A program made the position numbers and the translations under genes. The notes below the pieces were generated by a model that made no database searches, was not told where the DNA came from, and saw only the letters and a program-made list of their open reading frames with translations. From NCBI GenBank assembly GCA_024281375.1, contig JAJSAD010000028.1:1-52493 (forward strand): DNA of 52,493 nucleotides. The letters are read 5' to 3'. The DNA is from Alphaproteobacteria bacterium. GTDB lineage: Bacteria > Pseudomonadota > Alphaproteobacteria > Caedimonadales > UBA9215. Positions 1,510 to 43,768 of the stretch are shown piece after piece (the stretch's first letter is position 1; every line of letters begins with the position of its first letter).

Positions 1510-2247
1510 ATGGCTTTTATTGTTTTCATCCTACTAAACATCCAGTTTTCTTGGGCATCCTCTTCAACTTCTTTCGAAGACATTGATGACAATACAATTT
1601 TCAAAGTCAAAGATGTCAAGCCGTATACATCTGATATAACACTCCAATCCTCTAAAGATGGAATTCACAAAATAGACAGTGATAAATCTTTCAAATCTGA
1701 TTCATCCTTAAAGTCTTCAAAAAAACCAACCCTCATACGACGTATTTCCAAAAGAATTATAAATCCATTTAAAACAATAGATTCTATAAAAAATTATACG
1801 CCAAGAGAACTCTCTTTAATAGAGGCTGAACCGATAAGTAATTTATTCTTAGATGAGACACAACCCCATGGGTTGAATCTCCAAAATATCCACGAGCGGT
1901 GTTGGTTAATACGTCAAGTAAAGGAAGAAGCAGGTGGAAAAGATTTTTCTAATCTCATTATAATGCTAGAAGGCACAGTATCACGTCTTCAAGAAAAAAA
2001 AATAATGCTTGAACAATTAGAAAATGAAAAGAACCCTACAGAAGAAAATCATCAACAAATTAAAGACTTAAAAAATACAATTCAATGCTATAAAATTTCT
2101 ATGAAACGATCTTTCAAGACCATTTCCAATGTTATGAATTTACCTATAGATCAAATAGAGCTTTTGATTGACAGGGCACAATATAAAAATAAAATAAAAA
2201 ATTTGGCCCAGAGAAACAATGTGTTCAAAAGAAATAAGAATCTCTAA
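1510..2247 (+). CDS. Secreted coiled-coil protein of unknown function
   Basis: 245 residues. The N-terminus (MAFIVFILLNIQFSWASSS) is a short hydrophobic signal-like segment, with likely cleavage after WA-S. Residues about 20-75 are Ser/Asp/Lys-rich and probably disordered. About 120-205 is rich in Glu, Lys, Leu and Ile with heptad spacing and is likely a coiled coil. The last 30 residues are basic. I recognise no family. It has its own near-consensus promoter (1458-1485) and its base composition is more AT-rich than the flanking housekeeping genes, which fits an acquired or fast-evolving gene. A host-directed exported protein is possible but unproven. Confidence 0.6.
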   Translation: MAFIVFILLNIQFSWASSSTSFEDIDDNTIFKVKDVKPYTSDITLQSSKDGIHKIDSDKSFKSDSSLKSSKKPTLIRRISKRIINPFKTIDSIKNYTPRELSLIEAEPISNLFLDETQPHGLNLQNIHERCWLIRQVKEEAGGKDFSNLIIMLEGTVSRLQEKKIMLEQLENEKNPTEENHQQIKDLKNTIQCYKISMKRSFKTISNVMNLPIDQIELLIDRAQYKNKIKNLAQRNNVFKRNKNL

Positions 2248-6318: not shown

Positions 6319-6521
6319 TTAAGTCACACCATTTTTATTTTCAGTCTACCCCATGATTCTTTAAAAATCTTAATTTTCCCTAAAGAAAACAACAAACCCA
6401 AAATTTCGAGTAATAAAAATTTAAGATTTTCGAGAGGACTTTTTTAGGGTTTATCAATCTCTCTTAAAGAAAGTCCTGTCAGGATACATCTAGGTCTATG
6501 AAGAATGAAGAGAGGTGTGCC

Positions 6522-7544
6522 ATGCAAACCACGAAGTCTTCCCCAAAAACATTTTTTCTCCTTTTCCTCCTTATTTTCTTTCTGTCTCATCCCCTCCAAG
6601 CTGACCCGCCCCTCGAGAAAGAACAGGGCACAGAAACCCCCTCTTTTTATATGCCTCCTGCAATTTATCCGTTGGATATTTCCGAAACCTACGTCGTTCC
6701 TGCAGTTAATAACAACCGGGCTGATTTAACAAATTTGCGTTTTATGACCATCGATCCAGAAGGTGCCCATGAACTTGATGATGCCCTTTATGCCGAACAT
6801 AGTGAAAAAGGAGGGTATCATATTGCTGTCGCTATTGCAGATCCCACTCATTTTGTACAAGCAAACTCTCCTATTGCTTTAGAAGCGAAACGCCGTGGTA
6901 TCACGATTTATGGGGATCGACAGTCGATTCCTATGTTGCCTCCAGAAATTGCAAAAATCTGTTCCCTCAAAGAAGGGAAGAAACGCCCCGCAATTATCGT
7001 CGATTTTCACATAGACAAAGACGGGAATTTTCAAAATGAAATTTCCATTTATAAAGCCCTTATTCGATCTCGTCATCAGTTGTCTTATGACTATGTTCAG
7101 AGAATATATCAAGGAAGAGGACGGGGTATTGTCTCCTTTCATCTGAGAACTGACCTTTCTACTTTGAGGAATGCCGCCCAATCCCTTCGGTTTTATTCAT
7201 CGGGCCAGTTTGAAAACCTCAGCAGCCAGGATGTTGTGAGCGAAATGATGATGACAGCTAATAATGCCGTCGCAATGTACCTCAAAGAAATGGTGGTTCA
7301 AGAAGAAATTACACGGGGACTCTATCGCACACAACGCACACTAGATGAGCGTGCCCATTATACAAGCACATCCTCTTATCATGCTACTCTTGATAGAATA
7401 TATACTCACTTCACTTCGCCTCTCAGGCGATATGCAGACATGATGGTCCACTGGCTTTTATTTGAGGAAGAGTATGATTTTTCTGATGACACTCTAGAGC
7501 ACATCGAAACACAACAACGCGCCCTCAAGCGCGCCCGATTATAA
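6522..7544 (+). CDS. Secreted stand-alone RNB (RNase II/R-type) domain protein
   Basis: 340 residues from the ATG at 6522, which has GAGAGG six bases upstream; an in-frame ATG at 6498 has a poorer site. Residues 9-27 form a strong signal peptide (FFLLFLLIFFLSHPLQA). The rest is an RNB exoribonuclease domain: metal-site motif IDPEGAHELDDALYAE (78-92), 'VAIADPTHFV' (103-112), 'IPMLPPEIAKICSL' (136-149), 'MMMTANNAVA' (242-251) and THFTSPLRRYADMMVH (295-310). RNase II and R have four metal-site aspartates; here the second is Glu84, the others being Asp78, Asp86 and Asp87. The cold-shock and S1 RNA-binding domains of cytoplasmic relatives are absent. Predicted location is the periplasm or outside the cell. 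Activity is inferred from motifs only. Confidence 0.8.
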   Translation: MQTTKSSPKTFFLLFLLIFFLSHPLQADPPLEKEQGTETPSFYMPPAIYPLDISETYVVPAVNNNRADLTNLRFMTIDPEGAHELDDALYAEHSEKGGYHIAVAIADPTHFVQANSPIALEAKRRGITIYGDRQSIPMLPPEIAKICSLKEGKKRPAIIVDFHIDKDGNFQNEISIYKALIRSRHQLSYDYVQRIYQGRGRGIVSFHLRTDLSTLRNAAQSLRFYSSGQFENLSSQDVVSEMMMTANNAVAMYLKEMVVQEEITRGLYRTQRTLDERAHYTSTSSYHATLDRIYTHFTSPLRRYADMMVHWLLFEEEYDFSDDTLEHIETQQRALKRARL

Positions 7545-13752: not shown

Positions 13753-15885
13753 TTATGCCCTCTTCATAACATTATCAAGAGCCGCATTCAAAATCTCAAC
13801 ATTATTCGCCAAATCGTCTGTCATCATCAACACGTCTGAAGCAGAGGAAACATTTTCCTTCAAAGCGGTTTTAATCTCCCCTATATTATCCTTCACCTCA
13901 TTCACATTATTAGATGTGCTTTGCATATTACTGCTTATTTCTTGGGTCGCTAAGTTTTGCTCCTCTACAGAAGAGGTAATCTCATTAGAAATCTCATAAA
14001 CTTTTGCCATTGTCTCCCCAATGGTCTTAATACCAGAAACGATTTTTTCAGAGCCCTGCTGTATAGCCCCTATTTTCTCAATAATTTCTTCTGTCGCTTT
14101 TGCCGTCTGACCTGCTAGGTTTTTAACTTCACTCGCAACCACAGCAAACCCTTTTCCTGCCTCTCCAGCTCTGGCAGACTCGATAGTTGCGTTCAAGGCA
14201 AGAAGATTCGTTTGTTCAGCAATATCATTAATAAGCTCAATAACATTTCCAATACTATCAACTTCTGAAGCAAAGCTTTCAACGACCGCAACGACTTCAT
14301 TAACTTCACCTTGTGTTTGGGAAACAATCTTATTAGATTGATCTGTTTGAGCTGAAATTTGGCCAATAGAGGCAGACAATTCTTCCACAGCCGACGCAAC
14401 ACTAACGGCCCCTTCTTGAGAAACCGTCGCCGCTTGATCAACATCAGAGCTTTTTTCAACGGAATTATTTGATAAAGAAAGCACCATCTGAGAAGATTTT
14501 TTCATATCGATGGCAAGTTCTGATGTATCTTTTAGAACTGATTTAACGGTTTTCTCAAGATTATTCATGAGACCTTCAAGTTCATTAGACTTTTGTTCTG
14601 ATATAACAACGGCTGCATTAATAGCCTTTGATGAGGTTAAAAAATCTCCTTTCAAAGCATCTGTGGACATTTTTTTAGAATAATCTTCCTTGGCAACCCC
14701 ATCCATACAAGAGGACGCCCCCTTAATAAACAGATCGGTTTGCCTCATGAAATTATTTGTGCACTCTTGAACATCTTTCATTTCTCCCTGTGATTTTATA
14801 TCTTTAATTCTGTACCCTAAATTACCTGAAGCTCCTTTTATAAGAGCCGTCTTTAAAGCACTAAAGCACGTGTCTAAGGCGGAAACAAAATTCGTCCCAA
14901 AATAAAAAACACCCCCAAAAGACAATAACGTCAAAATAGATATGGCCACCAACCAATAAAGCGCTGAGTATTTTTTATGAATAACTGCGGATGTCAGGTC
15001 TTGAGCGAGTTTATCTTCGACCTTTTTTAGGTTATTTATTTTTCCAGTCATTTGCTTAAACCAATCACTTGCGGAAATTCCCTGCAAATCACCTGATTCA
15101 ACACTTGACCTTGCAATGTCACGCATACGGGCAACGTCTCTTACGGCCTCATTATTAAGAGCTGATTTAAAAAATTCTTTATGCTCTGGTAACGCTGTTT
15201 CATTAAAAATTGAAAAATACGTTTTTTGTATTGTGATTAATTTATTAAATCTTTTGATCTCTTGAAAACTAAAGCGCGTACTAAAACCGCCTGCACCAAT
15301 AGCCCGTTCAATACCAGCCCTTTCCTTTCCCATTAAAAAATTCACATAAGAGGATAATTGAAGGAGAATGGAGGCATCATGACTATTTTCTCGAGTAGAG
15401 CTCACTGCTCGCAAAAGATTCGTATTGATGTCTGTATAAAACCCAATAGCTTTTGGCGGTTTAATGGATAAAGAATCAACAGCTTTGCGATTTTGCGCCA
15501 ATTGAGTAAGACCCTTTAAAACATTTTTTAAACTTCTGTTAAAATCTGATGTTTCCCCTCCGGCCCGTACTGTTTTCGCATAAGCAACAAAATCCATCTT
15601 TTTTTCATCGGTAATCACCCGTTGTTTGGGGAGGTCGAGGGTAAACTTTTGGCCTCTACTTTTTATAAAGCCTGCGGTCATACCACGTTCTTTTTGCATT
15701 TCATGAAGAAGATTGGAAGCCTTAACAGAAAATTCGACGAGGTTTGATAATTCTTTATTTTCAGAAAAATCCGACCAGGTATTAAGGATCACACTAATTG
15801 AAAAAATAAGCATAACGGCACTCATAAAACCAAGCAAAGAAGTAATTTGCTCTCGTATACTGAAACTTAAAAAATACCTAATCAT
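13753..15885 (-). CDS. Methyl-accepting chemotaxis protein with NIT-type sensor domain
   Basis: 710 residues. TM1 is at about 13-33. The periplasmic region (35-310) contains '[15 protein letters not shown]' near residue 60 and '[15 protein letters not shown]' near 190, hallmarks of the NIT (nitrate/nitrite-sensing) all-helical domain. TM2 is at about 313-335, followed by a HAMP-like linker. The cytoplasmic signalling hairpin has the conserved tip '[19 protein letters not shown]'. It feeds the CheA/CheW complex encoded next door. Ligand identity is not determined by the motif alone. It ends eight bases after repeat copy B and probably has its own promoter in the AT-rich stretch 15886-15957. 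Confidence 0.9.
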
Positions 15886-24386: not shown

Positions 24387-26057
24387 CTAATCAAAGGCCG
24401 CAAGGCTTTCCTCTCTTTTTTCTAATACAGCAGGTAACCCCTTATTCCAGGGATTCCAGTATTGAAACCTTTCTAAATAACCTTCTGTTTTTTTCTTCAA
24501 TTGACTCATTAAGACTTCTCGGGCTTTACGCCACTTCTTAAGGTCTGTGCCCTCTGGGCATTCAGAGGCGAGAGCTGTCTGCATTCCTTTAAGAGTTGCA
24601 GGACCCGTAACACCAAACCAAGGTGTTGTGGTCTCCACACAGGGCACTAACGTTCTTAGAATAGGCAATTTTAACTCTAAAAGGGATTGTGTATTTTCCC
24701 TTAAATACGGGTGCCTCACAAGTAGCAATCCCTGGGCAGAAAAGGCATCTAATGCGTTACTTATAAAGTCTACATAGATTTCTGAAAAAGCAGAAACATC
24801 TTTTTGAGCCTTCATAAAAATGGGATTAAAATGAAGTGTTTTGTCAAAAGCCTCTTCTCTGGTTAAGTCCGTTGTACTTGGGTCCAATACAAAAGGTTCC
24901 AAGGCCTCAAAGCGTAATCTCTGATACTCAAATTCTTCCTCTGACCCTTCCTCTAAGCCTGTTATTTTCATACTCTTCATCATTGCCTCTACAGTGAAAT
25001 AGGCTTCCATGATCATATGGTGGATAGTCAACATCTTTAAGCGTAGAGGGGCACGTCGCTCATCGGGGGTTAAGTCTAAATCTGGTTTTGATTCCTCCTC
25101 CTCAAGATTTTCAACCACAAATTCAACAAATTCTTCCTCCCATTCCTCCATCGCCCCATCAGAAAACAACGCAAAAAGATCAGCGGTAAATTTTGACAAA
25201 AATGTCCCAAGATCCCTAACAGAGTCAAGAAGTGTTGTCGCCTGGGGGGCCGTTAACTTTTCACCCTTTGCTAATTGAAACCAACCTCTAAAGGTCGTCT
25301 CGAACCACTCTGTCGGACTCTCACCATGGTCTCGTATAAAATCAACGTTGTCCTCTGCATAAGGAATAACAAAGCGTTCTTTTAACGACTCTACCCAGGC
25401 TGGAAAATGCTCTACCAAGGCATCAGGAGACAGAGGCGCACTTTCAAGGTCTTGTAACAAGCTCTCTCTGCCTAGATCTTTTAAAAGAGCTTTAAAACGG
25501 GCATGGGCCAAAAGGGCTTGAGGATTTTTTGCAATCACAGCAGTTCTTAAAGAAATGAAATAAGGACGCAAACCCTCTCTCTTAATGTCTTTATCAGCCG
25601 GAAAGAGAAACGGTTCAATTATCTTCCCCTCATCATCTAAAATGTGAACAGTGTCTTTGATCTCACCCGGCTTAAAAATCACATCTTCGGTGGTCATGAA
25701 ATTATCTGGCACAGGAGATTCCACGAGAGCCTCTACGGAAAAAATTTTCAAAAATTCATCCCAGGGATCTAAGGCGACATCAACGTCAACATCAACTTCG
25801 ACAACAACTATCTCTTCTTCCCCTTCATCCCCTAGAACAACAGGCGGAGGCAGAACCTCTTCGTCCTCTCCTCCTTCTACTTCAAGGTGCACAGCTCCTG
25901 TTCTAACAACAGCGGATAAATCAATAACGGGACTTCCAGAAAGAGAAACACTCGCCCCGGCAGTAAATACAGCTCTCGCCTTTTGAAGAGAAAAACTCAC
26001 CCCGAACACAGCAAAAAAGATAATGGACCAATATAGTGTTTGTCGACAAAGAATCAA
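24387..26057 (-). CDS. Large secreted protein of unknown function
   Basis: 556 residues from a TTG at 26057, supported by GGGAGGA seven bases upstream; no other start fits. Residues 1-30 are a signal peptide with an Ala-x-Ala-like end (KARAV). Residues about 60-95 are an acidic stretch with Glu/Asp/Val runs (VEVDVDVDV). The rest is mostly helical and acidic, with two cysteines near the C-terminus ('LVPCVETT', 'LASECPEG'). I recognise no domain. Repeat copy C lies 24 bases upstream of the start, so the promoter must be within or beyond that element. An exported structural protein or effector are both possible. Confidence 0.65.
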   Translation of the reverse strand: MILCRQTLYWSIIFFAVFGVSFSLQKARAVFTAGASVSLSGSPVIDLSAVVRTGAVHLEVEGGEDEEVLPPPVVLGDEGEEEIVVVEVDVDVDVALDPWDEFLKIFSVEALVESPVPDNFMTTEDVIFKPGEIKDTVHILDDEGKIIEPFLFPADKDIKREGLRPYFISLRTAVIAKNPQALLAHARFKALLKDLGRESLLQDLESAPLSPDALVEHFPAWVESLKERFVIPYAEDNVDFIRDHGESPTEWFETTFRGWFQLAKGEKLTAPQATTLLDSVRDLGTFLSKFTADLFALFSDGAMEEWEEEFVEFVVENLEEEESKPDLDLTPDERRAPLRLKMLTIHHMIMEAYFTVEAMMKSMKITGLEEGSEEEFEYQRLRFEALEPFVLDPSTTDLTREEAFDKTLHFNPIFMKAQKDVSAFSEIYVDFISNALDAFSAQGLLLVRHPYLRENTQSLLELKLPILRTLVPCVETTTPWFGVTGPATLKGMQTALASECPEGTDLKKWRKAREVLMSQLKKKTEGYLERFQYWNPWNKGLPAVLEKREESLAAFD

Positions 26058-35341: not shown

Positions 35342-35415
35342 TATAGTCCTTCCAAAAAGGTCCCAGACGTCGTCATTCGTTCCTAAACTATAAGGCATAG
35401 TCGTCGGTCACTCTT
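35342..35415 (+). repeat. MITE-like repeat, family 2 (TATAGT), copy 3 (partial)
   Basis: A 74-bp copy lacking the right end. It starts TATAGTCCTTCCAAAAAGG and runs CCCAGACGTCGTCATTCG, TTCCTAAACTA and ATAGTCGTCGGTCACTCTT, parallel to copy 2. The homology runs through the stop codon of tssA (35408-35410, TCA on the plus strand) and ends at about 35415, inside the last codons of that gene. Confidence 0.65.
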
Positions 35416-36538
35416 GCTCATTCATCCCCAAAAGATGCATAGCATTTTGAAGACCCCCACTTTGTTGAGCAAGCTCGGTCATCAACTCACCAAGAGACAT
35501 ATCCCCCCAACTCACTGCCCGCCTAATTAAATAAGGGGTTGGGCTATGGGGCTCAATCTCTGCGAGATAATCAGCTATTTGGCTCAACAATTCATAAGCC
35601 TGTTGGCGATTTTGAAGGGTCCCTTCAACGGTAAGATTTTTTATAATCATAGGTGCGCTCATTGATAGTGTGTTAGTCGGTTGATTTTTTTTATCAGATT
35701 TAATGTCAACAACCTCGGCATCGCTTTGTGTTGCCCCAGAAGATCTTTCTTGGTAAATATTTTTTGTAAAGTGAAGAATTTTTTCAAGACGTCCGCGAAG
35801 ATGCATCAAACACCCTGGAAACTCTTTATAGTTTTTTTCGATAAGCTTTTCAATGTCTTTGATTAAAACTAAAGAGTCACTAACTTCATCAATAAGAGAC
35901 CCATAAAATTCTGTCGAGGTTTGCTTCACCGCCCCATAAAAAGCCACCGCCTCTGAAGACATTTTATTTTTATGGGCACCTGCCACTGATTTTTGTTGAT
36001 TGGGGGGCGTAATTAACACTTTGCTTTGATAGTCCCAAAAGGTCAAAGCCCGTTGAGGATCACCCTCCGGTAACGCAATAATCAACTGCGTTAAAGCCTT
36101 AGAAAGCTCCTTGTCAAACCACAAAAGTGGCACCACTCGATACTCAGGGTCATCTTTTGAAAAAGGGTGAAAAGAATCCCAAAAATTTTCCAGCAATTGT
36201 TTGGTGAGGTTTAAGCCATTTTTCAAACCATAGGCCTGATATTCATGGTACCAGCACTCCGTGAGCCAGAGGGATAATTGAAGATCTTTTGATTTTGTTT
36301 GAAGGGCCCCAACACAAATTTCTTCGGCCTTATCCCATTGGGACTCTTTCAGGTCATGGGCCCAAACCCCTTGAGGTAAATCTTCTTCGGACTTACGGGC
36401 TAGTTGAATATCATCGTATTCCTGTTCATAACGAAGAGATTTACCACTGGGTTCTGCCTTGGAGACAGGTTTTAAAAACGCAGCCAAAGCCTTCTTATCA
36501 AGGAGATCAGGATAGTCTTTTGCTTGTTTAAAAAACAT
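35408..36538 (-). CDS. tssA: Type VI secretion protein TssA (ImpA N-terminal domain)
   Basis: 376 residues. The ImpA_N domain (about 25-150) is clear: 'EPSGKSLRYEQEYDDIQLA', 'LPQGVWAHDL', 'SKDLQLSLWLTE' and 'GLNLTKQLLENFWDSFHP'. A variable middle follows, then a short C-terminal part with 'IRSRQQAYELL'-like paired helices and 'PHSPTPYLIRRAVSW', which is the TssA C-terminal signature (P-x-S-P-x-x-x-L-I-x-R). TssA contacts baseplate and membrane complexes and guides sheath assembly. It is the last gene of the tss operon, 18 bases after tssM. Its stop codon lies in a repeat element, so the original C-terminus may have been slightly different. Confidence 0.88.
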   Translation of the reverse strand: MFFKQAKDYPDLLDKKALAAFLKPVSKAEPSGKSLRYEQEYDDIQLARKSEEDLPQGVWAHDLKESQWDKAEEICVGALQTKSKDLQLSLWLTECWYHEYQAYGLKNGLNLTKQLLENFWDSFHPFSKDDPEYRVVPLLWFDKELSKALTQLIIALPEGDPQRALTFWDYQSKVLITPPNQQKSVAGAHKNKMSSEAVAFYGAVKQTSTEFYGSLIDEVSDSLVLIKDIEKLIEKNYKEFPGCLMHLRGRLEKILHFTKNIYQERSSGATQSDAEVVDIKSDKKNQPTNTLSMSAPMIIKNLTVEGTLQNRQQAYELLSQIADYLAEIEPHSPTPYLIRRAVSWGDMSLGELMTELAQQSGGLQNAMHLLGMNEQE

Positions 36539-36556
36539 ATTTTTTAAATTCCTGTT

Positions 36557-39500
36557 TTACCTCTTTTGGTACGGGGGCGCTGTATAGGGGAAGCTTGGCA
36601 CGGGTACCGCCTTATTTTGTTCTTCTCCGGGAGGAGGCGCTTCCCCTTCTTTGGGTGGCTCAACAGGTGTTCCCATGGTCAAACGCATATAAATCTTAAC
36701 AGGGCGGCTTTCCCGTTCAAAGGGCATCACGGTTTTGCCCCGATAACAATTAGGATTAAAGGCCGTTGGAATCGCAAATTCTAGCAACTGAGACCCTGGA
36801 TTTGCATCAGTATCCAAAGCTGTTTCCGGTAAAACATGCTCCCGCAGTAAACGCACCAAAGACCACCTACCATCATAACTAAAGATCGCATGGTTGCCAA
36901 AAACATTTAGCTTCTTGAGACGCGGGTCCGGCAAGGGAACTGTCTCCCCATTTTTGGCCCACTTAATCATCATATTAATGGGCATCCCAACACGCCATTC
37001 AATAATAGGCGTGCTGTCGCGCATGGTGCTCACAGCACTCGCAACCTTCATGCTCCAATCGATAATGTTTTCTCCCCCGAATTCACGCTCCTGATCAGTC
37101 CTGAAACTCGCAAGAAGGTTCACTTTTGCAATTTGATCAGCATTGGCCGAATCCATAGCAGAGAGCATCAAAGGCCTGATGCTCACGATATCCTTCACAA
37201 ATTTACCAACGGAATTTTTAGCCCCCACATTCTTTGCAGACATTTTTAACATCTCAAGTTGTTGAAGCTTCATAGAATCAAAAATCTTAAAGAATGTCGC
37301 CACATCAGCAGGTGCTGCCTCAGGCCCGTCACCCAGTTCTTTTGTAAAAGGAAAACGTCCTGCTAAGTTTGCATTAAAGAAAGCAGCGGCTTGATTATAT
37401 TTCTTAACTGCATCCTTAAAGCCAACGGACTCGCACTGTTTTTCTACAGCCTCAAAATAATGATTCCGCACATCAAGGAAGTAATCCCCTGTTTGGGCGA
37501 ACTTATCAAAGTCTCCAACCTTATCCAAACAGTTAGCCAAGGAAATAGAGTTCAACTCTTCGCTTAAAAATTTCTCAAGAACTTGAAGAGAGTTGCCCGG
37601 CACTTTTTTCTCATAATCTGCCAAAACAGAAATAATACGTGCCCACTTAGACACCAAAGGCATATCCATGGGAATCCCACTCAAGAAAGGTTGTGACAGC
37701 ATTCCTAAGATTGGTTTCGCCATCTCATTGGCCAAGAACGTAATACTAAAACGTTGCGCTGCAAGGTAAGCCCCCATATCATTCCCGTCACTCACATTAA
37801 AGAGCTTGAAGGCGATCATTTCCCCGCCTTTCCACCAACGCAATTCTTCCTGATTCGCACTATAAAGATTATCCACGGACAGAAGATTATTTATTTTCTC
37901 GAGGACATTATAATTTTGATTAATAAGGAGCTCACGCAGATTAGCCGTTGTCATCACAAAACTACCATCATCAAACACACCCATAATCTTGGCAAACAAC
38001 GGCGTGGCAACGGCAATATTACTCACTTGTTTTGATAACAATTCCCTGGCTCCAAAGCCTGTCATACTCGCGGGCTCCGCTTGGTAAGATTGCGCAAGAG
38101 CCACATAATTCACAATTTTCTTACGCACCCCATTACGCCCCACTTCCCGGAAAAATTCTTGTACAGAAGGTGAATAAGCACTTAACCGTTTGGCCGTGAA
38201 ATCTTCATAAGAGAGCACCACATTAACGGCTTTGTTCAAGGTCACATCATCCCAGAACATCAGTTTACCTGGAGGAATTTTAAAGAGAATCTGATAACTA
38301 TCAACAGGAGCCATAAAGGGTTCATTCAAAAAGGATGTCAACGAATCAATAAGATTAATCAAACCCGAAGAGGGCTCTGAAACCAACTGACCATTTTCAA
38401 CACTAAAAAACGTCCCCACAAGTTCGGAGCGCATACCCGCCAAATTCAATCGATACCTCGAAAAGGCAAGGTTTGCTACCCGTCCTAAATCAGACGCCAT
38501 TTGCCGCCCAAGGAGTTGAGAGCTCACCATTTGATCCATCGCCTGATCATAAAGCTTTCCAGGATCAAAGAGTGTTTTAGAGAGCCAGGCTAACTTACCG
38601 CTGATGGCAAGGTCGGCAAAGGAAATGGCTTTTTCCGTCAACTGACGTAAATCTTTTTCATCCATTTTCTTGTAAGCAGAATAATTCACAATGGCATTTA
38701 ATTCTTTTTGAAGGTCGATGAGAACAGGTAAGTTTTGCTTCACATCTAAAACCTCAATTAAGAAATTACGATACAAAAGGCGTAATTTTTCTTGCGCTGC
38801 TTGGCTATGTTGATCAAAGGCGATTTGCTCCCCAAAAATTTCAGCCAACGCCACACGATAATAATCAGCATTGGAAAAGAACTGGCGGGGCAACTCCCGA
38901 TTAAAGAGGTACTTTGTCAATCGCCCAAGCATGCGCACGCTTGTTGTACTTTTCAAACGATTAAAAGCAATGATATTATCTTCAAGATTAGCAACCTCTT
39001 GAATAAAATATTGGAGCCGCTTAAAAGAAGGGGCCGTTGTTGGATTTGGAAAAGGCTGAGTGCTTTTAACGGACGGTTGAACACCAGAATCTTTGGAAAC
39101 AACCTTTTGAATACGAGATTTAAGAGCCCCTGACAAAGAAGGTAAAATAATCTTATCATAGGCAGATGTAAAACTTTTTCCTATTTTTTCATCCACCAGC
39201 GAAAACCAAGACGCTGGGATAAAAATTGAAAAAGAATTCACGGCATCAACCTTTACAAATTCTGCCATGACTTTTTCAGACTGAACATTGAGATACTTTT
39301 CAAGTTTTTGTGGATTGCCTGTAGAGGTACGTTCATTCACCCCAAGAATAGAATCATTAATCAAGTTTAAGGACGGGTAGAGACTCCGATTCGCCGTTTT
39401 TAAATCTCCATAAGAATTAAACAACCCCACAAGCCATATCACCGTTACAACACCCCCAATAACCTTTGCAGAATTAAGGGCTTGATTTGTAGAGACCAAC

Positions 39501-40771
39501 AAGCGGGTATTGGGCTCACAAACCCCAAATTCTTTAAAGACTTTTTGAGCCAGTAAATCCTTAACAAAGACAACCTTACCCAGTTCTGGGTCTGCATTTT
39601 TTGCAGAAGAACCCTCTTTTTGTTGTTTTTGCAAGAACTCAATCACATCTTGATTATCGCCCAGGCCGGAAAAATAAACTCCCCGCAAAAAGAACGAATC
39701 GTGATAACTACTTTCTTTGAACATCGAAACCAAATACAGTCCCAAACTCTCCTTCATCGAAGCAAGCTCTATAGGAAAAAGGGCATTACCAATGCGACGA
39801 TCATCCATCAAGTCCCGCGTAAAGATCGATGACCGGAGACGATTAAATCCTGTACGCAACCCTTGAAAAATCGTGTCGATCCACTCTTCCGTAAAGGCTG
39901 TGTGAATATCATAAGGAGAGGACCAGCCCAACATTTCTTGGCGTTTGTTCTCTGGAATTTGGGCAACAAGGCTTGAGAATCCGGGAATCTTATCGCTTTT
40001 TGTCACCACAATATAAATAGGAACACGCATCCCAAGAGTGTTTTGCATTTTCCAAAGTTTGGCATAAATCGCACGCCCGCGCGCTGATAAATTATCTTTT
40101 GAGAGCTGTCCATCCCCCACAAGTTCATTGGCAGGAATCGTCAGAATCACCCCATCAATGGGACGTTTGGGGCGATGATATTTAAAGAGATTTAATAAGT
40201 AGCTCCACTGACCGTCATCGGAATTGGTCCCTTCTTCACTCAGGACCAAATCCCCCCGCACATCGGCAATAACCGCTTGATCAAAAAACTTCCAATTCAC
40301 AGGAGAGAGGTCTGATGTGATCTCATTAACGGGATCACCAATGGGCAACTCAAGTTGAGCACCATCCAAAAATGTTGATTTACCAGACCCCTCACACCCA
40401 ATAACCATATACCAAGGAAGGTGATACTGAGCTTCTTTAGGGCCAAAATACCCTTGAAGAACCTCAATGGCTAATTGGAAAGATTTCGCTGTTTCATTGC
40501 GCAAATCACCCACATATTTCTGGCGCACCTTTGAGGAAATCCCCTTCAAGCGCCCAAAAAATCCTTTCGTAGACTTCACATAATCCGAGAGGGATTTTTT
40601 CTCCACAGGCAGACCCGCAGAAGCGCGCGCAGCAGCCTTTTCGCGCGCATAATTTCGAATAATTTTTATCAGCAACATCCCGGCAAGAACAAGAACAATA
40701 AGGCCTATTAAAAACAACCAAAAGATCGCCCATGTCAGGTCTGGAAGTAACTGTTTGACTAATTCACTCAT
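36557..40771 (-). CDS. tssM: Type VI secretion membrane-complex protein TssM (IcmF)
   Basis: 1404 residues. TM1 is at about 12-38. A cytoplasmic NTPase-like domain has a complete Walker A GCEGSGKS (125-132) and 'NELVGDGQLSKDN' downstream. A further membrane helix lies near 433-452 (VIGGVVTVIWLVGLFNSYG). The long periplasmic region ends in the IcmF C-terminal domain with Pro-rich tail. TssM spans the inner membrane and forms the TssJLM trans-envelope channel with TssL and TssJ. It is somewhat longer than usual for the family. tssL lies 12 bases upstream and tssA 18 bases downstream. Confidence 0.95.
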   Translation of the reverse strand: MSELVKQLLPDLTWAIFWLFLIGLIVLVLAGMLLIKIIRNYAREKAAARASAGLPVEKKSLSDYVKSTKGFFGRLKGISSKVRQKYVGDLRNETAKSFQLAIEVLQGYFGPKEAQYHLPWYMVIGCEGSGKSTFLDGAQLELPIGDPVNEITSDLSPVNWKFFDQAVIADVRGDLVLSEEGTNSDDGQWSYLLNLFKYHRPKRPIDGVILTIPANELVGDGQLSKDNLSARGRAIYAKLWKMQNTLGMRVPIYIVVTKSDKIPGFSSLVAQIPENKRQEMLGWSSPYDIHTAFTEEWIDTIFQGLRTGFNRLRSSIFTRDLMDDRRIGNALFPIELASMKESLGLYLVSMFKESSYHDSFFLRGVYFSGLGDNQDVIEFLQKQQKEGSSAKNADPELGKVVFVKDLLAQKVFKEFGVCEPNTRLLVSTNQALNSAKVIGGVVTVIWLVGLFNSYGDLKTANRSLYPSLNLINDSILGVNERTSTGNPQKLEKYLNVQSEKVMAEFVKVDAVNSFSIFIPASWFSLVDEKIGKSFTSAYDKIILPSLSGALKSRIQKVVSKDSGVQPSVKSTQPFPNPTTAPSFKRLQYFIQEVANLEDNIIAFNRLKSTTSVRMLGRLTKYLFNRELPRQFFSNADYYRVALAEIFGEQIAFDQHSQAAQEKLRLLYRNFLIEVLDVKQNLPVLIDLQKELNAIVNYSAYKKMDEKDLRQLTEKAISFADLAISGKLAWLSKTLFDPGKLYDQAMDQMVSSQLLGRQMASDLGRVANLAFSRYRLNLAGMRSELVGTFFSVENGQLVSEPSSGLINLIDSLTSFLNEPFMAPVDSYQILFKIPPGKLMFWDDVTLNKAVNVVLSYEDFTAKRLSAYSPSVQEFFREVGRNGVRKKIVNYVALAQSYQAEPASMTGFGARELLSKQVSNIAVATPLFAKIMGVFDDGSFVMTTANLRELLINQNYNVLEKINNLLSVDNLYSANQEELRWWKGGEMIAFKLFNVSDGNDMGAYLAAQRFSITFLANEMAKPILGMLSQPFLSGIPMDMPLVSKWARIISVLADYEKKVPGNSLQVLEKFLSEELNSISLANCLDKVGDFDKFAQTGDYFLDVRNHYFEAVEKQCESVGFKDAVKKYNQAAAFFNANLAGRFPFTKELGDGPEAAPADVATFFKIFDSMKLQQLEMLKMSAKNVGAKNSVGKFVKDIVSIRPLMLSAMDSANADQIAKVNLLASFRTDQEREFGGENIIDWSMKVASAVSTMRDSTPIIEWRVGMPINMMIKWAKNGETVPLPDPRLKKLNVFGNHAIFSYDGRWSLVRLLREHVLPETALDTDANPGSQLLEFAIPTAFNPNCYRGKTVMPFERESRPVKIYMRLTMGTPVEPPKEGEAPPPGEEQNKAVPVPSFPYTAPPYQKR

Positions 40772-40783
40772 TGTTGATCAACC

Positions 40784-41596
40784 TTATCTTTTAACAGAAC
40801 TATTGTGTATAATTTTCTCAGCAATTTCTTCAACGTCTGATGTCGCACTTTGCCACATCACAAAGGACATTAACAAAACAACACCAAAAACACTTGCAAA
40901 GGCCCCCGTCCAAAAACGAACATCCTGAAAACGACGGGCATGACCATCGGTCAATGTATGGCTGTAGGCTTGGGCAAACAAACGGTCTTCTCCCTGATAA
41001 AAACGGGGTTCTTCGTGATTAATAAAAATATAAAGTTCTTGGCGGTAATAATCGAGTTGACGTTGATCGGGCATACCGCGAAATTTTCCCTTAAAACCAA
41101 CACCCAAAGCCAATAAATAAACTTCTGCAATGTCACGACGCAACGGGTCACGCTTTTCAAGGAAATCATCCAATCTGACAAAAAAAGTATCCCCAGAATC
41201 ATGGGTTCCATAAAGACGCGCCTCAACGAGATTCTCACTCCAATACTGCTTGCCGGCAAAGTCAGGTAAATTCAAGAACAGCTCATCGGTCAAAGCTGCC
41301 ATAATGTATTGCGCTTCTTTGTAATAGGTGACTGCAAACTCCCCGCCTTTTTGAGCAGAAATAAGGGCTTGGCGTTCTAGGGTTTCATAAAGATCGTTAA
41401 GGATAAGCTGAATACGCTCCACCATGGTACTATCCGCATCACCAGGAATTCCATCCGCCGCCGATTTAGCTGTTGAGAGCTCTGCATTACACGTCTTTAA
41501 ATGTGTTAAAATGAGGCGATAATAATCCTCAAAAAAGCCCATCACAAAACCTGTATCGTTCCCCGTATCCATTTGTCGTTTAAGAGCGTAACTCAT
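40784..41596 (-). CDS. tssL: Type VI secretion protein TssL (DotU/ImpK)
   Basis: 270 residues. The cytoplasmic DotU domain (about 20-225) contains 'YYKEAQYIMAALTDELFLNL', 'YWSENLVEARLYGTHDSGDTFF' in part, and 'EVYLLALGVGFKGKFRG', all family hallmarks. A single C-terminal transmembrane helix (about 230-250) and roughly 20 periplasmic residues follow. There is no OmpA-like peptidoglycan-binding extension, so wall anchoring must come from another protein; the SPOR-domain protein of this operon is a candidate. Confidence 0.93.
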   Translation of the reverse strand: MSYALKRQMDTGNDTGFVMGFFEDYYRLILTHLKTCNAELSTAKSAADGIPGDADSTMVERIQLILNDLYETLERQALISAQKGGEFAVTYYKEAQYIMAALTDELFLNLPDFAGKQYWSENLVEARLYGTHDSGDTFFVRLDDFLEKRDPLRRDIAEVYLLALGVGFKGKFRGMPDQRQLDYYRQELYIFINHEEPRFYQGEDRLFAQAYSHTLTDGHARRFQDVRFWTGAFASVFGVVLLMSFVMWQSATSDVEEIAEKIIHNSSVKR

Positions 41597-41661
41597 CTAA
41601 AAACTCCGAACCTATTTTATTTTAACAACACTCAGCACTCACGATAAAAATCGTTCTCATG

Positions 41662-43029
41662 CTAAGATGAGGGTTTAACTATCTTCTTTTTCTTTTGTTC
41701 TGTCTTCTTAGGGACATACATCACAATATCCGTTGGGCGCTTTAAAAGCGTATCTCCCACATTAAAGATTTGGAATTCTTCATCCGCATTAATAAAGGAG
41801 TGATCATAAACAACTTCTAAAAGGATCATGTCTTTACTAGGCATAAGACGCAGAGCCTTATTCCCAGAAATGAGCTTACGAGGGGCCCCCAAGATACGTT
41901 TATCACGCACACCAGCTACAAAATCTCGCGTCGCAATCACAGCGGATGTCGCCCATTCAATCAAATCTTTCTCACGCATATTGACCGACCCTTTAATGCC
42001 AATGGTCAATTTATCCGTCATCCAATCCCGCTCAAGGTCAACCTTAAAGACACGATCATCCTTGGCAAACGCAATAATACTAAAGCCTTCTTGCAATGCA
42101 TTTAAACAATGGGCAATATAATCAAAAACCGCCCTAAAAGAAGTCATGAGGGCATTATGGGTATAAGGCTCAAAAACAGGGGGGATTTCGCTGGGACGCA
42201 GAGCACTCATATGACCCGCAAGATTACAGAGCCCCACATATAAATCAAAGGGATGGGTGCTCCCTGTTTGCACAAGAGCCTCAAAACTCACCAAACCGGA
42301 CATCATTGTTTTAATATGAGCCTGAGATTCCTGAGCCATAATAGAGCGATTGTCATTACGGATTTGCTCACTTAAAAAAGCAGCTTTGTTACGAATATTT
42401 TTAGCCGTATGAGCGCATAAACTCCCGAGCTTAGAGGTTAATGAAACCCCTAAAGACGGCGGTGTAAAATCATCTAATACATAATTAGATTTAACTTGAC
42501 TAACCTTTGCAATGGGAAAAAACACAAAGCGCCCTGACGGCTCCTCCCCCGCGAATAAGGTCAAATGAGGTTTTAAACAAGGAAACCTGGGGGCTTCTTC
42601 ACCGGTATTTTGATTAATGACAAAACCAGATTCCGTCGACTCATAACGGGGAAATTCAGATGTTAAACTCGCCGCATCTGAGCGATGCTCTGGAATCGCT
42701 AAATAAACATAGATACTTTTTGATTTTTTAAATTGCTTGGCATAATCCCCTAAATCAAGCTCTAGGTGATCACCATCTTCTGCATTCAACCCCACAACCA
42801 TACCATCGGGCATAATAGCATCGAGCTCCATAATACGAAAAAGTCCCGACGCTAAGAGAACATCATCAATTGTAAGATGACTAACCCCCCAATAATGAGG
42901 CAAAGCTTTTGAAAGTTGAAAATGCTGTAATTGCTCTAAGCGCCGATCAGCCTGTTGAAAATGCTCTGGGCGCAACAACATACCGTCATGCCATTGAACT
43001 GCTTTTTTTAACTGACGTAGTGCGCTCAT
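41662..43029 (-). CDS. tssK: Type VI secretion baseplate protein TssK (ImpJ)
   Basis: 455 residues. The N-terminus has 'VQWHDGMLLRPEHFQQADRR', matching the family motif W-x-x-G-M-x-L-x-P-x-H-F-Q. The body has 'LNAEDGDHLELDL' and 'YVYLAIPEHRSDA'. The C-terminus carries 'KLISGNKALRLMPSKDMILL'. TssK links the baseplate to the TssJLM membrane complex. The ATG at 43029 leaves 25 bases to tssJ. A basic tail (KKTEQKKKKIVKP) ends the protein. Confidence 0.93.
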   Translation of the reverse strand: MSALRQLKKAVQWHDGMLLRPEHFQQADRRLEQLQHFQLSKALPHYWGVSHLTIDDVLLASGLFRIMELDAIMPDGMVVGLNAEDGDHLELDLGDYAKQFKKSKSIYVYLAIPEHRSDAASLTSEFPRYESTESGFVINQNTGEEAPRFPCLKPHLTLFAGEEPSGRFVFFPIAKVSQVKSNYVLDDFTPPSLGVSLTSKLGSLCAHTAKNIRNKAAFLSEQIRNDNRSIMAQESQAHIKTMMSGLVSFEALVQTGSTHPFDLYVGLCNLAGHMSALRPSEIPPVFEPYTHNALMTSFRAVFDYIAHCLNALQEGFSIIAFAKDDRVFKVDLERDWMTDKLTIGIKGSVNMREKDLIEWATSAVIATRDFVAGVRDKRILGAPRKLISGNKALRLMPSKDMILLEVVYDHSFINADEEFQIFNVGDTLLKRPTDIVMYVPKKTEQKKKKIVKPSS

Positions 43030-43054
43030 TTAATGTCTCCTCAACATCGAAAAA

Positions 43055-43768
43055 CTATTTTGGTGAAAATTTAGCTGCCTGCGCCGCCATTTTTTTAGCC
43101 GCATCCCCACTTCCTTTAACAGCCTGAGCGGCTTTTGCAGCCTCCACACTCGCAATAGAAGATTGGGGATTCGCCTTCTTCACCTCTTTAAAAACAAAAT
43201 TAGCTTGCATGGCTGCTGCCTGATCAGACATATCCGGGTTCGGTTCCCCAAAACATCCTTGCTCAATAACACAAAAATCATTGGCCTTAAAATGAACATG
43301 GATAATCTTCGAAGACCCAATTCTGACCCGTTGAGGGCCTGGTGCATAATAATTTGCAAACATCACAACACCCTGCGGATCATCGGACCGTAAATTAATG
43401 GGATAATTTTTAATCACCTGACCGGGGGTCAGTTCCCAATGAAGGATATCTGCCAACTCGGGATAGTCTTGCTTGACTTGCTTGACGATAGAGTAATAGT
43501 CCTTTGCTTCCAATCCCAAAAGAACCTTCAAGAGATCGGGATCATAAACAATTAAAAGATCAATAGCCGTTGCAGAATTAGAATTCGCATCACTATCAAG
43601 GGACAAATTCACTTCTTTAAGGTAAATAGGCGGAATGGGAGAGGGGGTAAAGAGAGAACATGCAGACAAACCCATTACCGCTATAAGGGGCATCACCCGC
43701 AAAGCCATAGAAAAATACCTTGGCGATAATTTAAATCCAAAAAATTTTACTAATTTATCTTGTGTCAT
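43055..43768 (-). CDS. tssJ: Type VI secretion outer-membrane lipoprotein TssJ
   Basis: 237 residues. A signal peptide ends in the lipobox LSAC with Cys at about 37. The beta-sandwich that follows has 'LKEVNLSLDSDANSNSATAI' and 'LLIVYDP', then 'VMFANYYAPGPQRVR', as in TssJ/SciN. The C-terminal 60 residues are Ala/Lys-rich and extend beyond the usual domain. TssJ anchors the TssM C-terminus at the outer membrane. The gene sits between the SPOR-domain gene (13 bases) and tssK (25 bases). Confidence 0.85.
   Translation of the reverse strand: MTQDKLVKFFGFKLSPRYFSMALRVMPLIAVMGLSACSLFTPSPIPPIYLKEVNLSLDSDANSNSATAIDLLIVYDPDLLKVLLGLEAKDYYSIVKQVKQDYPELADILHWELTPGQVIKNYPINLRSDDPQGVVMFANYYAPGPQRVRIGSSKIIHVHFKANDFCVIEQGCFGEPNPDMSDQAAAMQANFVFKEVKKANPQSSIASVEAAKAAQAVKGSGDAAKKMAAQAAKFSPK

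What the first reader, a model, noticed from the sequence alone, without database searches (positions are those of the whole stretch)
6522..7544. Exported stand-alone RNB ribonuclease-like protein
RNB enzymes are normally cytoplasmic and flanked by cold-shock and S1 domains. This one has a strong signal peptide and only the RNB core, with the SPLRRY-type motif and three of four metal-site Asp residues; the other is Glu84. An exported exoribonuclease could scavenge RNA in the periplasm, or act on host or competitor RNA if exported further. A chemotaxis cluster follows on the opposite strand and a T6SS operon lies about 28 kb away, so direct linkage is not shown.
Basis: partly seen in the sequence, partly recalled or inferred. 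Interest (0 to 1): 0.75.

Follow-up and report, generated by a model that had tools for sequence, protein, structure and literature searches.

The report
Exported, stripped-down RNase R-like enzyme
A bacterium related to protist endosymbionts makes a small, apparently exported version of an RNA-shredding enzyme that normally works inside the cell; it keeps most of the catalytic site but has lost the parts used to grip and unwind RNA, and its job is unproven.

Summary
Window 6522-7544 (+) encodes a 340-aa protein: an N-terminal export signal, a ~38-aa linker and one RNB domain (E=3e-61), with no cold-shock or S1 domains. It is not a fragment of the cell's RNase R: an intact 752-aa copy lies on another contig, and an orthologue (51% identity, same architecture, different position) under purifying selection occurs in Holosporales MAG UBA9215. 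None of 81 comparison RNB proteins has such an N-terminus. No third member appeared in 10 order, 385 class and 398 phylum genomes, a narrow GTDB scan, phages or plasmids.

The RNB is itself trimmed: it lacks the ~52-residue trihelix used to unwind duplex RNA, and the F358 segment. Metal ligands (D78, E84, D86, D87), Y130, Y189 and R302 remain. E84 matches the Glu conserved in Dss1 and is Asp in the orthologue. RNase II E390 is Ser in both.

Best reading: a Sec-exported, single-strand-specific 3'-5' exoribonuclease acting in the periplasm or beyond, perhaps cleaning up or scavenging RNA. Export and activity are inferred. No link to the chemotaxis or T6SS genes was found. This is a new lineage-restricted variant of a known enzyme kind.

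The parts
6522..7544 (+). exported compact RNB protein, 340 aa plus stop
   Evidence: orthologue G001/UBA9215 52% identity over 4-336
6522..6602 (+). predicted Sec signal peptide (aa 1-27, cleavage LQA|D inferred)
   Evidence: hydropathy 3.07 against a maximum of 1.38 in 81 RNB proteins; helix 7-22 in the model; property kept in the orthologue though only 23% identical over aa 1-40
6603..6716 (+). low-confidence linker (aa 28-65) where CSD1/CSD2 would lie in RNase R
   Evidence: pLDDT below 50 at 23-40; alignment gap opposite the CSDs
6717..7340 (+). RNB domain, first stretch (Pfam positions 1-229): D78/E84/D86/D87, Y130, Y189, S240-E241
6753..6782 (+). metal-site signature D78-P-E-G-A-H-E84-L-D86-D87
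   Evidence: Dss1 signature DxxxxxELDD in PMC8097288
7299..7340 (+). junction (about aa 260-273) where the RNB trihelix is missing (E. coli RNase R 480-531)
   Evidence: trihelix defined in PMC10023572 and PMC10901742
7341..7541 (+). RNB domain, last part with SPLRRYAD (R302 = RNase II R500) and the terminal helix; no S1 domain follows
6507..6515 (+). Shine-Dalgarno-like sequence GAAGAGAGG upstream of ATG 6522
   Evidence: read directly

Best explanation
A Sec-exported, minimal RNB-family 3'-5' exoribonuclease. Shown by sequence and model: an N-terminal export-signal-like segment; an RNB fold with the metal site, end-product tyrosine, catalytic tyrosine and R500-equivalent arginine; loss of CSDs, S1, trihelix and the F358 segment; purifying selection. 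Inferred: after cleavage by signal peptidase the enzyme works in the periplasm (or beyond, through a secretin system, since secretins are present), trimming accessible single-stranded RNA 3' ends with a divalent metal to 5'-NMPs and a short end product. It would be weakly bound and distributive and unable to unwind duplexes. The likeliest role is clean-up or scavenging of RNA reaching the envelope of a host-associated alphaproteobacterium. Step probabilities: exported 0.85, catalytically active 0.7, single-strand specific if active 0.75, scavenging or clean-up role 0.4.
For: RNB match; signal-like N-terminus unique among 81 RNB proteins and kept in the orthologue despite low identity there; purifying selection (pN 0.33, pS 0.78); catalytic residues retained; confident models of both proteins, with PDB matches of the window model to RNase R/II, Dis3, Dis3L2 and Dss1 at E about 1e-21 to 1e-16. 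Glu at the Asp207 position is the conserved state in Dss1 (PMC8097288). RNase R RNB alone functions in vivo (PMC10579198). Trihelix deletion in Dis3L2 impairs dsRNA but not ssRNA decay (PMC10023572). Three TLC nucleotide translocases and Holosporales membership of a congener fit a host-associated life.
Against: No export or activity data. RNase II Glu390, Glu in 30 of 32 aligned proteins, is Ser in both compact proteins. The junction at 261-290 is poorly modelled in the window protein. RNB products are 5'-NMPs, and neither a PF02872 5'-nucleotidase nor S1/P1 nucleases were found, so a scavenging route is incomplete. The third genome of the genus has TLC carriers but no compact RNB.
Confidence: 0.55

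Rival explanations
1. Secreted effector: the enzyme passes both membranes and degrades RNA of a eukaryotic host or of competing bacteria.
For: Host-associated order (PMC11909080); three secretin genes in the genome; T6SS genes in the window; narrow distribution and faster evolution than the RNase R pair (51% against 75.5% identity).
Against: A Sec signal suits the periplasm or T2SS, not classical T6SS loading; no immunity gene, adaptor or effector domain next to it; T6SS genes lie 28 kb away and the orthologue has another neighbourhood. An exonuclease without RNA-binding domains would be a weak toxin.
Confidence: 0.15
2. Pseudonuclease: an exported RNB fold that binds RNA or a partner but no longer cleaves, like fungal Ssd1.
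For: Two active-site-region substitutions (E84 in the window protein, S240 for RNase II E390 in both) and loss of RNA-binding parts; Ssd1 precedent (PMC8097288).
Against: Asp209, Asp210, Asp201, Tyr313, Tyr253 and Arg500 equivalents are kept in both; the RNB core is the best-conserved part, 60-62% identity; Glu at that place is conserved in Dss1.
Confidence: 0.2
3. Membrane-tethered RNB: the N-terminal helix is not cleaved and anchors the enzyme at the inner membrane facing the periplasm.
For: The hydrophobic stretch is long in the orthologue (helix 7-27; 19-mer hydropathy up to 1.97); no cleavage predictor could be run.
Against: LQA|D in the window protein and VFA or ASA in the orthologue look like signal peptidase I sites; the window protein has no 19-mer above 1.6.
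Confidence: 0.15
4. Decayed or truncated copy of the cell's RNase R without function, or a mis-called start of a cytoplasmic protein.
For: It lacks CSDs and S1; no clear sigma-70 promoter upstream; origin of the gene unresolved.
Against: Intact RNase R elsewhere; the same architecture in a second species with purifying selection; the alternative Met44 is Asn in the orthologue; no stops or frameshifts.
Confidence: 0.04

Closest known systems
RNase R (bacterial rnr; TIGR02063)
   Same: RNB catalytic core; HFTSP-RRYAD motif; best NCBIfam score (182.7 bits)
   Different: No CSD1/CSD2/S1, no trihelix, export signal; far below the family cut-off of 597.85
RNase II (rnb; TIGR02062 / NF003455)
   Same: RNB core; DDAL and AIADPT residues resemble RNase II; groups with it in trees, but long branches meet
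   Different: Lower profile score (133-146 bits); lacks CSDs, S1, the F358 segment and trihelix; exported
Dss1 (mitochondrial mtEXO exonuclease)
   Same: Glu in place of the second metal-site Asp (DxxxxxELDD); RNB fold match (6f3h)
   Different: Dss1 has auxiliary domains and a helicase partner, Suv3; weak sequence relation
Dis3L2 trihelix-deletion mutant (laboratory construct, PMC10023572)
   Same: RNB lacking the trihelix wedge
   Different: That construct was made to remove the trihelix and linker; the compact protein also lacks CSDs and S1
Deinococcus radiodurans RNase II-family protein (2r7d)
   Same: Smaller RNB protein (469 aa in the crystal); fold match E=4e-19
   Different: Larger and only 23% identical; other features not compared here

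Membership tests
RNB / RNase II superfamily (PF00773) | Significant RNB profile match | tested here: met
   E=3.1e-61, 207.9 bits against cut-off 29.3
RNB / RNase II superfamily (PF00773) | Four metal-site Asp residues and catalytic Arg | tested here: inconclusive
   Three Asp plus Glu84 and R302; the orthologue has all four Asp
RNase R (TIGR02063) | Full-length equivalog score of 597.85 or more | tested here: not met
   182.7 bits
RNase R / RNase II | Two CSDs before and S1 after the RNB | tested here: not met
   Only 65 aa precede the RNB and nothing follows its last helix. Pfam silence alone is no proof: it also misses these domains in the cell's full RNase R
RNase R | Trihelix in the RNB for duplex unwinding | tested here: not met
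   Gap opposite E. coli RNase R 480-531
RNase II (TIGR02062) | Equivalog score 641.9; Tyr253-Phe358 clamp | tested here: not met
   133 bits; Tyr kept, Phe358 segment missing
Ssd1-type pseudonuclease | Loss of catalytic Asp residues | tested here: not met
   D78, D86, D87 retained; E84 conservative
Sec-exported protein | n/h/c-region signal peptide | tested here: inconclusive
   Hydropathy and site inspection agree in two orthologues; no SignalP, no experiment
T6SS effector | Linkage or fusion to T6SS parts, immunity gene | tested here: not met
   T6SS genes at 35.4-43.0 kb, no linkage; no T6SS gene in the 9-kb contig stretch around the orthologue
3'-5' exoribonuclease activity | Releases 5'-NMPs from RNA 3' ends | not testable with these tools
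   needs an assay

The most novel reading that the evidence does not exclude
A secreted, trihelix-free RNB exonuclease acts on RNA of a eukaryotic host (or of competitors), a use of the RNase II/R fold outside the producing cell for which I found no precedent in the open-access library searched.
Probability: 0.13. Interest if true: 0.8.

Novelty: new variant of a known kind. Interest (0 to 1): 0.5.

Why it matters
RNase II/R enzymes are regarded as intracellular RNA-turnover machines whose accessory domains feed RNA into the RNB channel. A naturally evolved, exported RNB without those domains, without the trihelix and with a Dss1-like Glu would show how little of the enzyme is needed, offer a minimal natural scaffold for testing single-strand against duplex specificity, and open the question of what an RNA exonuclease does in the envelope of a host-associated bacterium.

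Tried and rejected
Truncated RNase R: rejected. Viral or plasmid origin: 80 viral loci were fetched, and the 51 whose ORFs were examined have no signal-like N-terminus; they run 503-785 aa apart from two cut by contig ends. Phage and plasmid hits were all under 60% identity, and those with annotation are RNase R/II or RNB-domain ribonucleases or nucleases. Origin: trees put the compact pair with RNase II when it is present and inside alphaproteobacterial RNase R when it is removed; the AU tests made (p 0.138 and 0.51) do not reject an RNase R origin, so origin is left open. Synteny: orthologues are in different places (terC/cheR against mscS-like/mreB; mreB in the window's genome has an AFG1-like ATPase upstream) and the congeners' cheR loci sit near contig ends. 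Promoter scan: no match on the coding strand. Literature searches for exported RNB proteins found none. The role of RNase II Tyr313 and Glu390 in RNA/DNA discrimination is from memory: the 2009 paper is cited in PMC3293843 but is not held.

Full report
OBSERVATION. The ORF at window 6522-7544 (+) is real: 340 aa, ATG start with a Shine-Dalgarno-like GAGAGG, no internal stops. Pfam gives PF00773 (RNB) at E=3.1e-61 in two stretches, profile 1-229 and about 280-320. The N-terminus MQTTKSSPKTFFLLFLLIFFLSHPLQA|DPP looks like a Sec signal peptide. Its best 12-residue hydropathy is 3.07, against at most 1.38 in 81 comparison RNB proteins from alphaproteobacteria, E. coli and viral contigs, and in the window mainly known or likely exported or membrane proteins exceed 2.3. 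No dedicated predictor was available.

NOT A BROKEN RNASE R. The same genome has an intact 752-aa RNase R on contig C49. An orthologue of the compact protein occurs in a congener, the MAG UBA9215, titled 'Holosporales bacterium'. It is 346 aa, 51% identical, also begins with a signal-like segment, and has the same internal gaps. Codon comparison gives pN 0.33 against a saturated pS 0.78, so amino acids are under purifying selection; the RNB parts are 60-62% identical, the first 40 residues only 23%, although the hydrophobic character is kept. The alternative internal start Met44 is Asn in the orthologue. A third genome of the genus (89% complete) lacks it.

DISTRIBUTION. Searches of 10 genomes of the order, 385 of the class and 398 of the phylum found no third compact member; the hits listed outside the genus are long RNase R-type proteins, apart from one cut by a contig end. 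The scan of 84,980 species used two narrow peptide patterns and returned only UBA9215, so divergent members elsewhere may have been missed. Phage, plasmid and viral collections gave none.

ANATOMY. Aligned with E. coli RNase II and R, the compact protein keeps D201 (D78), D209 (D86), D210 (D87), Y253 (Y130), Y313 (Y189) and R500 (R302); D207 is Glu84 in the window protein and Asp in the orthologue; E390, Glu in 30 of 32 aligned proteins, is Ser240 in both. It lacks CSD1, CSD2 and S1. It also lacks two pieces around RNase II 348-379, which include F358, and the stretch of E. coli RNase R 480-531. That last stretch corresponds closely to the trihelix, defined as RNase R 477-534 in the 30S-bound structure (PMC10901742) and P612-M669 in human Dis3L2 (PMC10023572). 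The boundary match is my alignment inference. AlphaFold2 models of both proteins give a confident RNB core (mean pLDDT 80.1 and 82.1; the blocks holding the metal site, Tyr189 and Arg302 above 90) with a poorly defined trihelix junction in the window protein. Foldseek matches are RNase R, RNase II, Dis3, Dis3L2 and Dss1.

MECHANISM. In RNase II four Asp and Arg500 form the active site, Asp209 is the most critical, products are 5'-nucleoside monophosphates, and Tyr253/Phe358 clamp the last nucleotides (PMC3293843). Glu at the Asp207 position is the conserved state in Dss1, and the authors infer it is tolerated in active enzymes (PMC8097288). [quoted passage not shown] Removing the trihelix and linker from Dis3L2 impairs duplex but not single-strand decay (PMC10023572). 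From these I infer a metal-dependent 3'-5' exonuclease for single-stranded RNA, weakly bound and distributive. The Ser at E390 may alter sugar discrimination; that residue's role is recalled from memory, not tested.

WHERE AND WHY. The genome has three TLC-type nucleotide translocases (no hit in 14 control genomes), which fits a host-associated life, as does the placement of UBA9215 in Holosporales, an order described as obligately associated with eukaryotes, mostly protists (PMC11909080). Three secretin genes mean passage beyond the periplasm is conceivable. PF02872 5'-nucleotidase and S1/P1 nuclease were not found, so a complete scavenging route is not shown. The gene stands alone on its strand, between terC and the end of the chemotaxis cluster on the other strand; the orthologue lies between an mscS-like gene and mreB (gene names there by inspection), so neighbourhood gives no functional clue. 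The T6SS genes (TssA, TssM, TssL, TssK at 35.4-43.0 kb) are real but unlinked.

ORIGIN. Unresolved. Profile scores favour RNase R over RNase II. Trees join the compact pair to RNase II through two long branches, and place it among alphaproteobacterial RNase R when RNase II is left out; the AU tests made do not reject an RNase R origin.

VERDICT. A genuine, selected, lineage-restricted, exported-looking minimal RNB protein: a new variant of a known kind. Activity, location and role remain to be tested.

Noticed in passing
window 1510-2247 (+): Exported-looking 245-aa protein with no Pfam or NCBIfam family.
   Followed up: partly
window 24387-26057 (-): 556-aa ORF with a hydrophobic N-terminus and no Pfam or NCBIfam match.
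   Followed up: partly
window 13753-15885 (-): Chemoreceptor with a NIT (nitrate/nitrite sensing) domain in a genome that also carries three nucleotide translocases.
   Followed up: no
window 35408-43768 (-): T6SS gene set (TssA, TssM, TssL, TssK) plus a 237-aa protein without a family; the Holosporales T6SS is described as probably non-standard in PMC11909080.
   Followed up: no
L138 (G092:C7:688600-691000): A second RNB gene in another alphaproteobacterium whose RNB begins soon after the first start codon in the fetched stretch (512 aa there); possibly another short RNB, but the stretch is cut.
   Followed up: partly
L145 994-1620 (-): Upstream of mreB in the third genome of the genus: an exported-looking 208-aa protein with two similar W-R/K-PGRP-containing repeats.
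   Followed up: no
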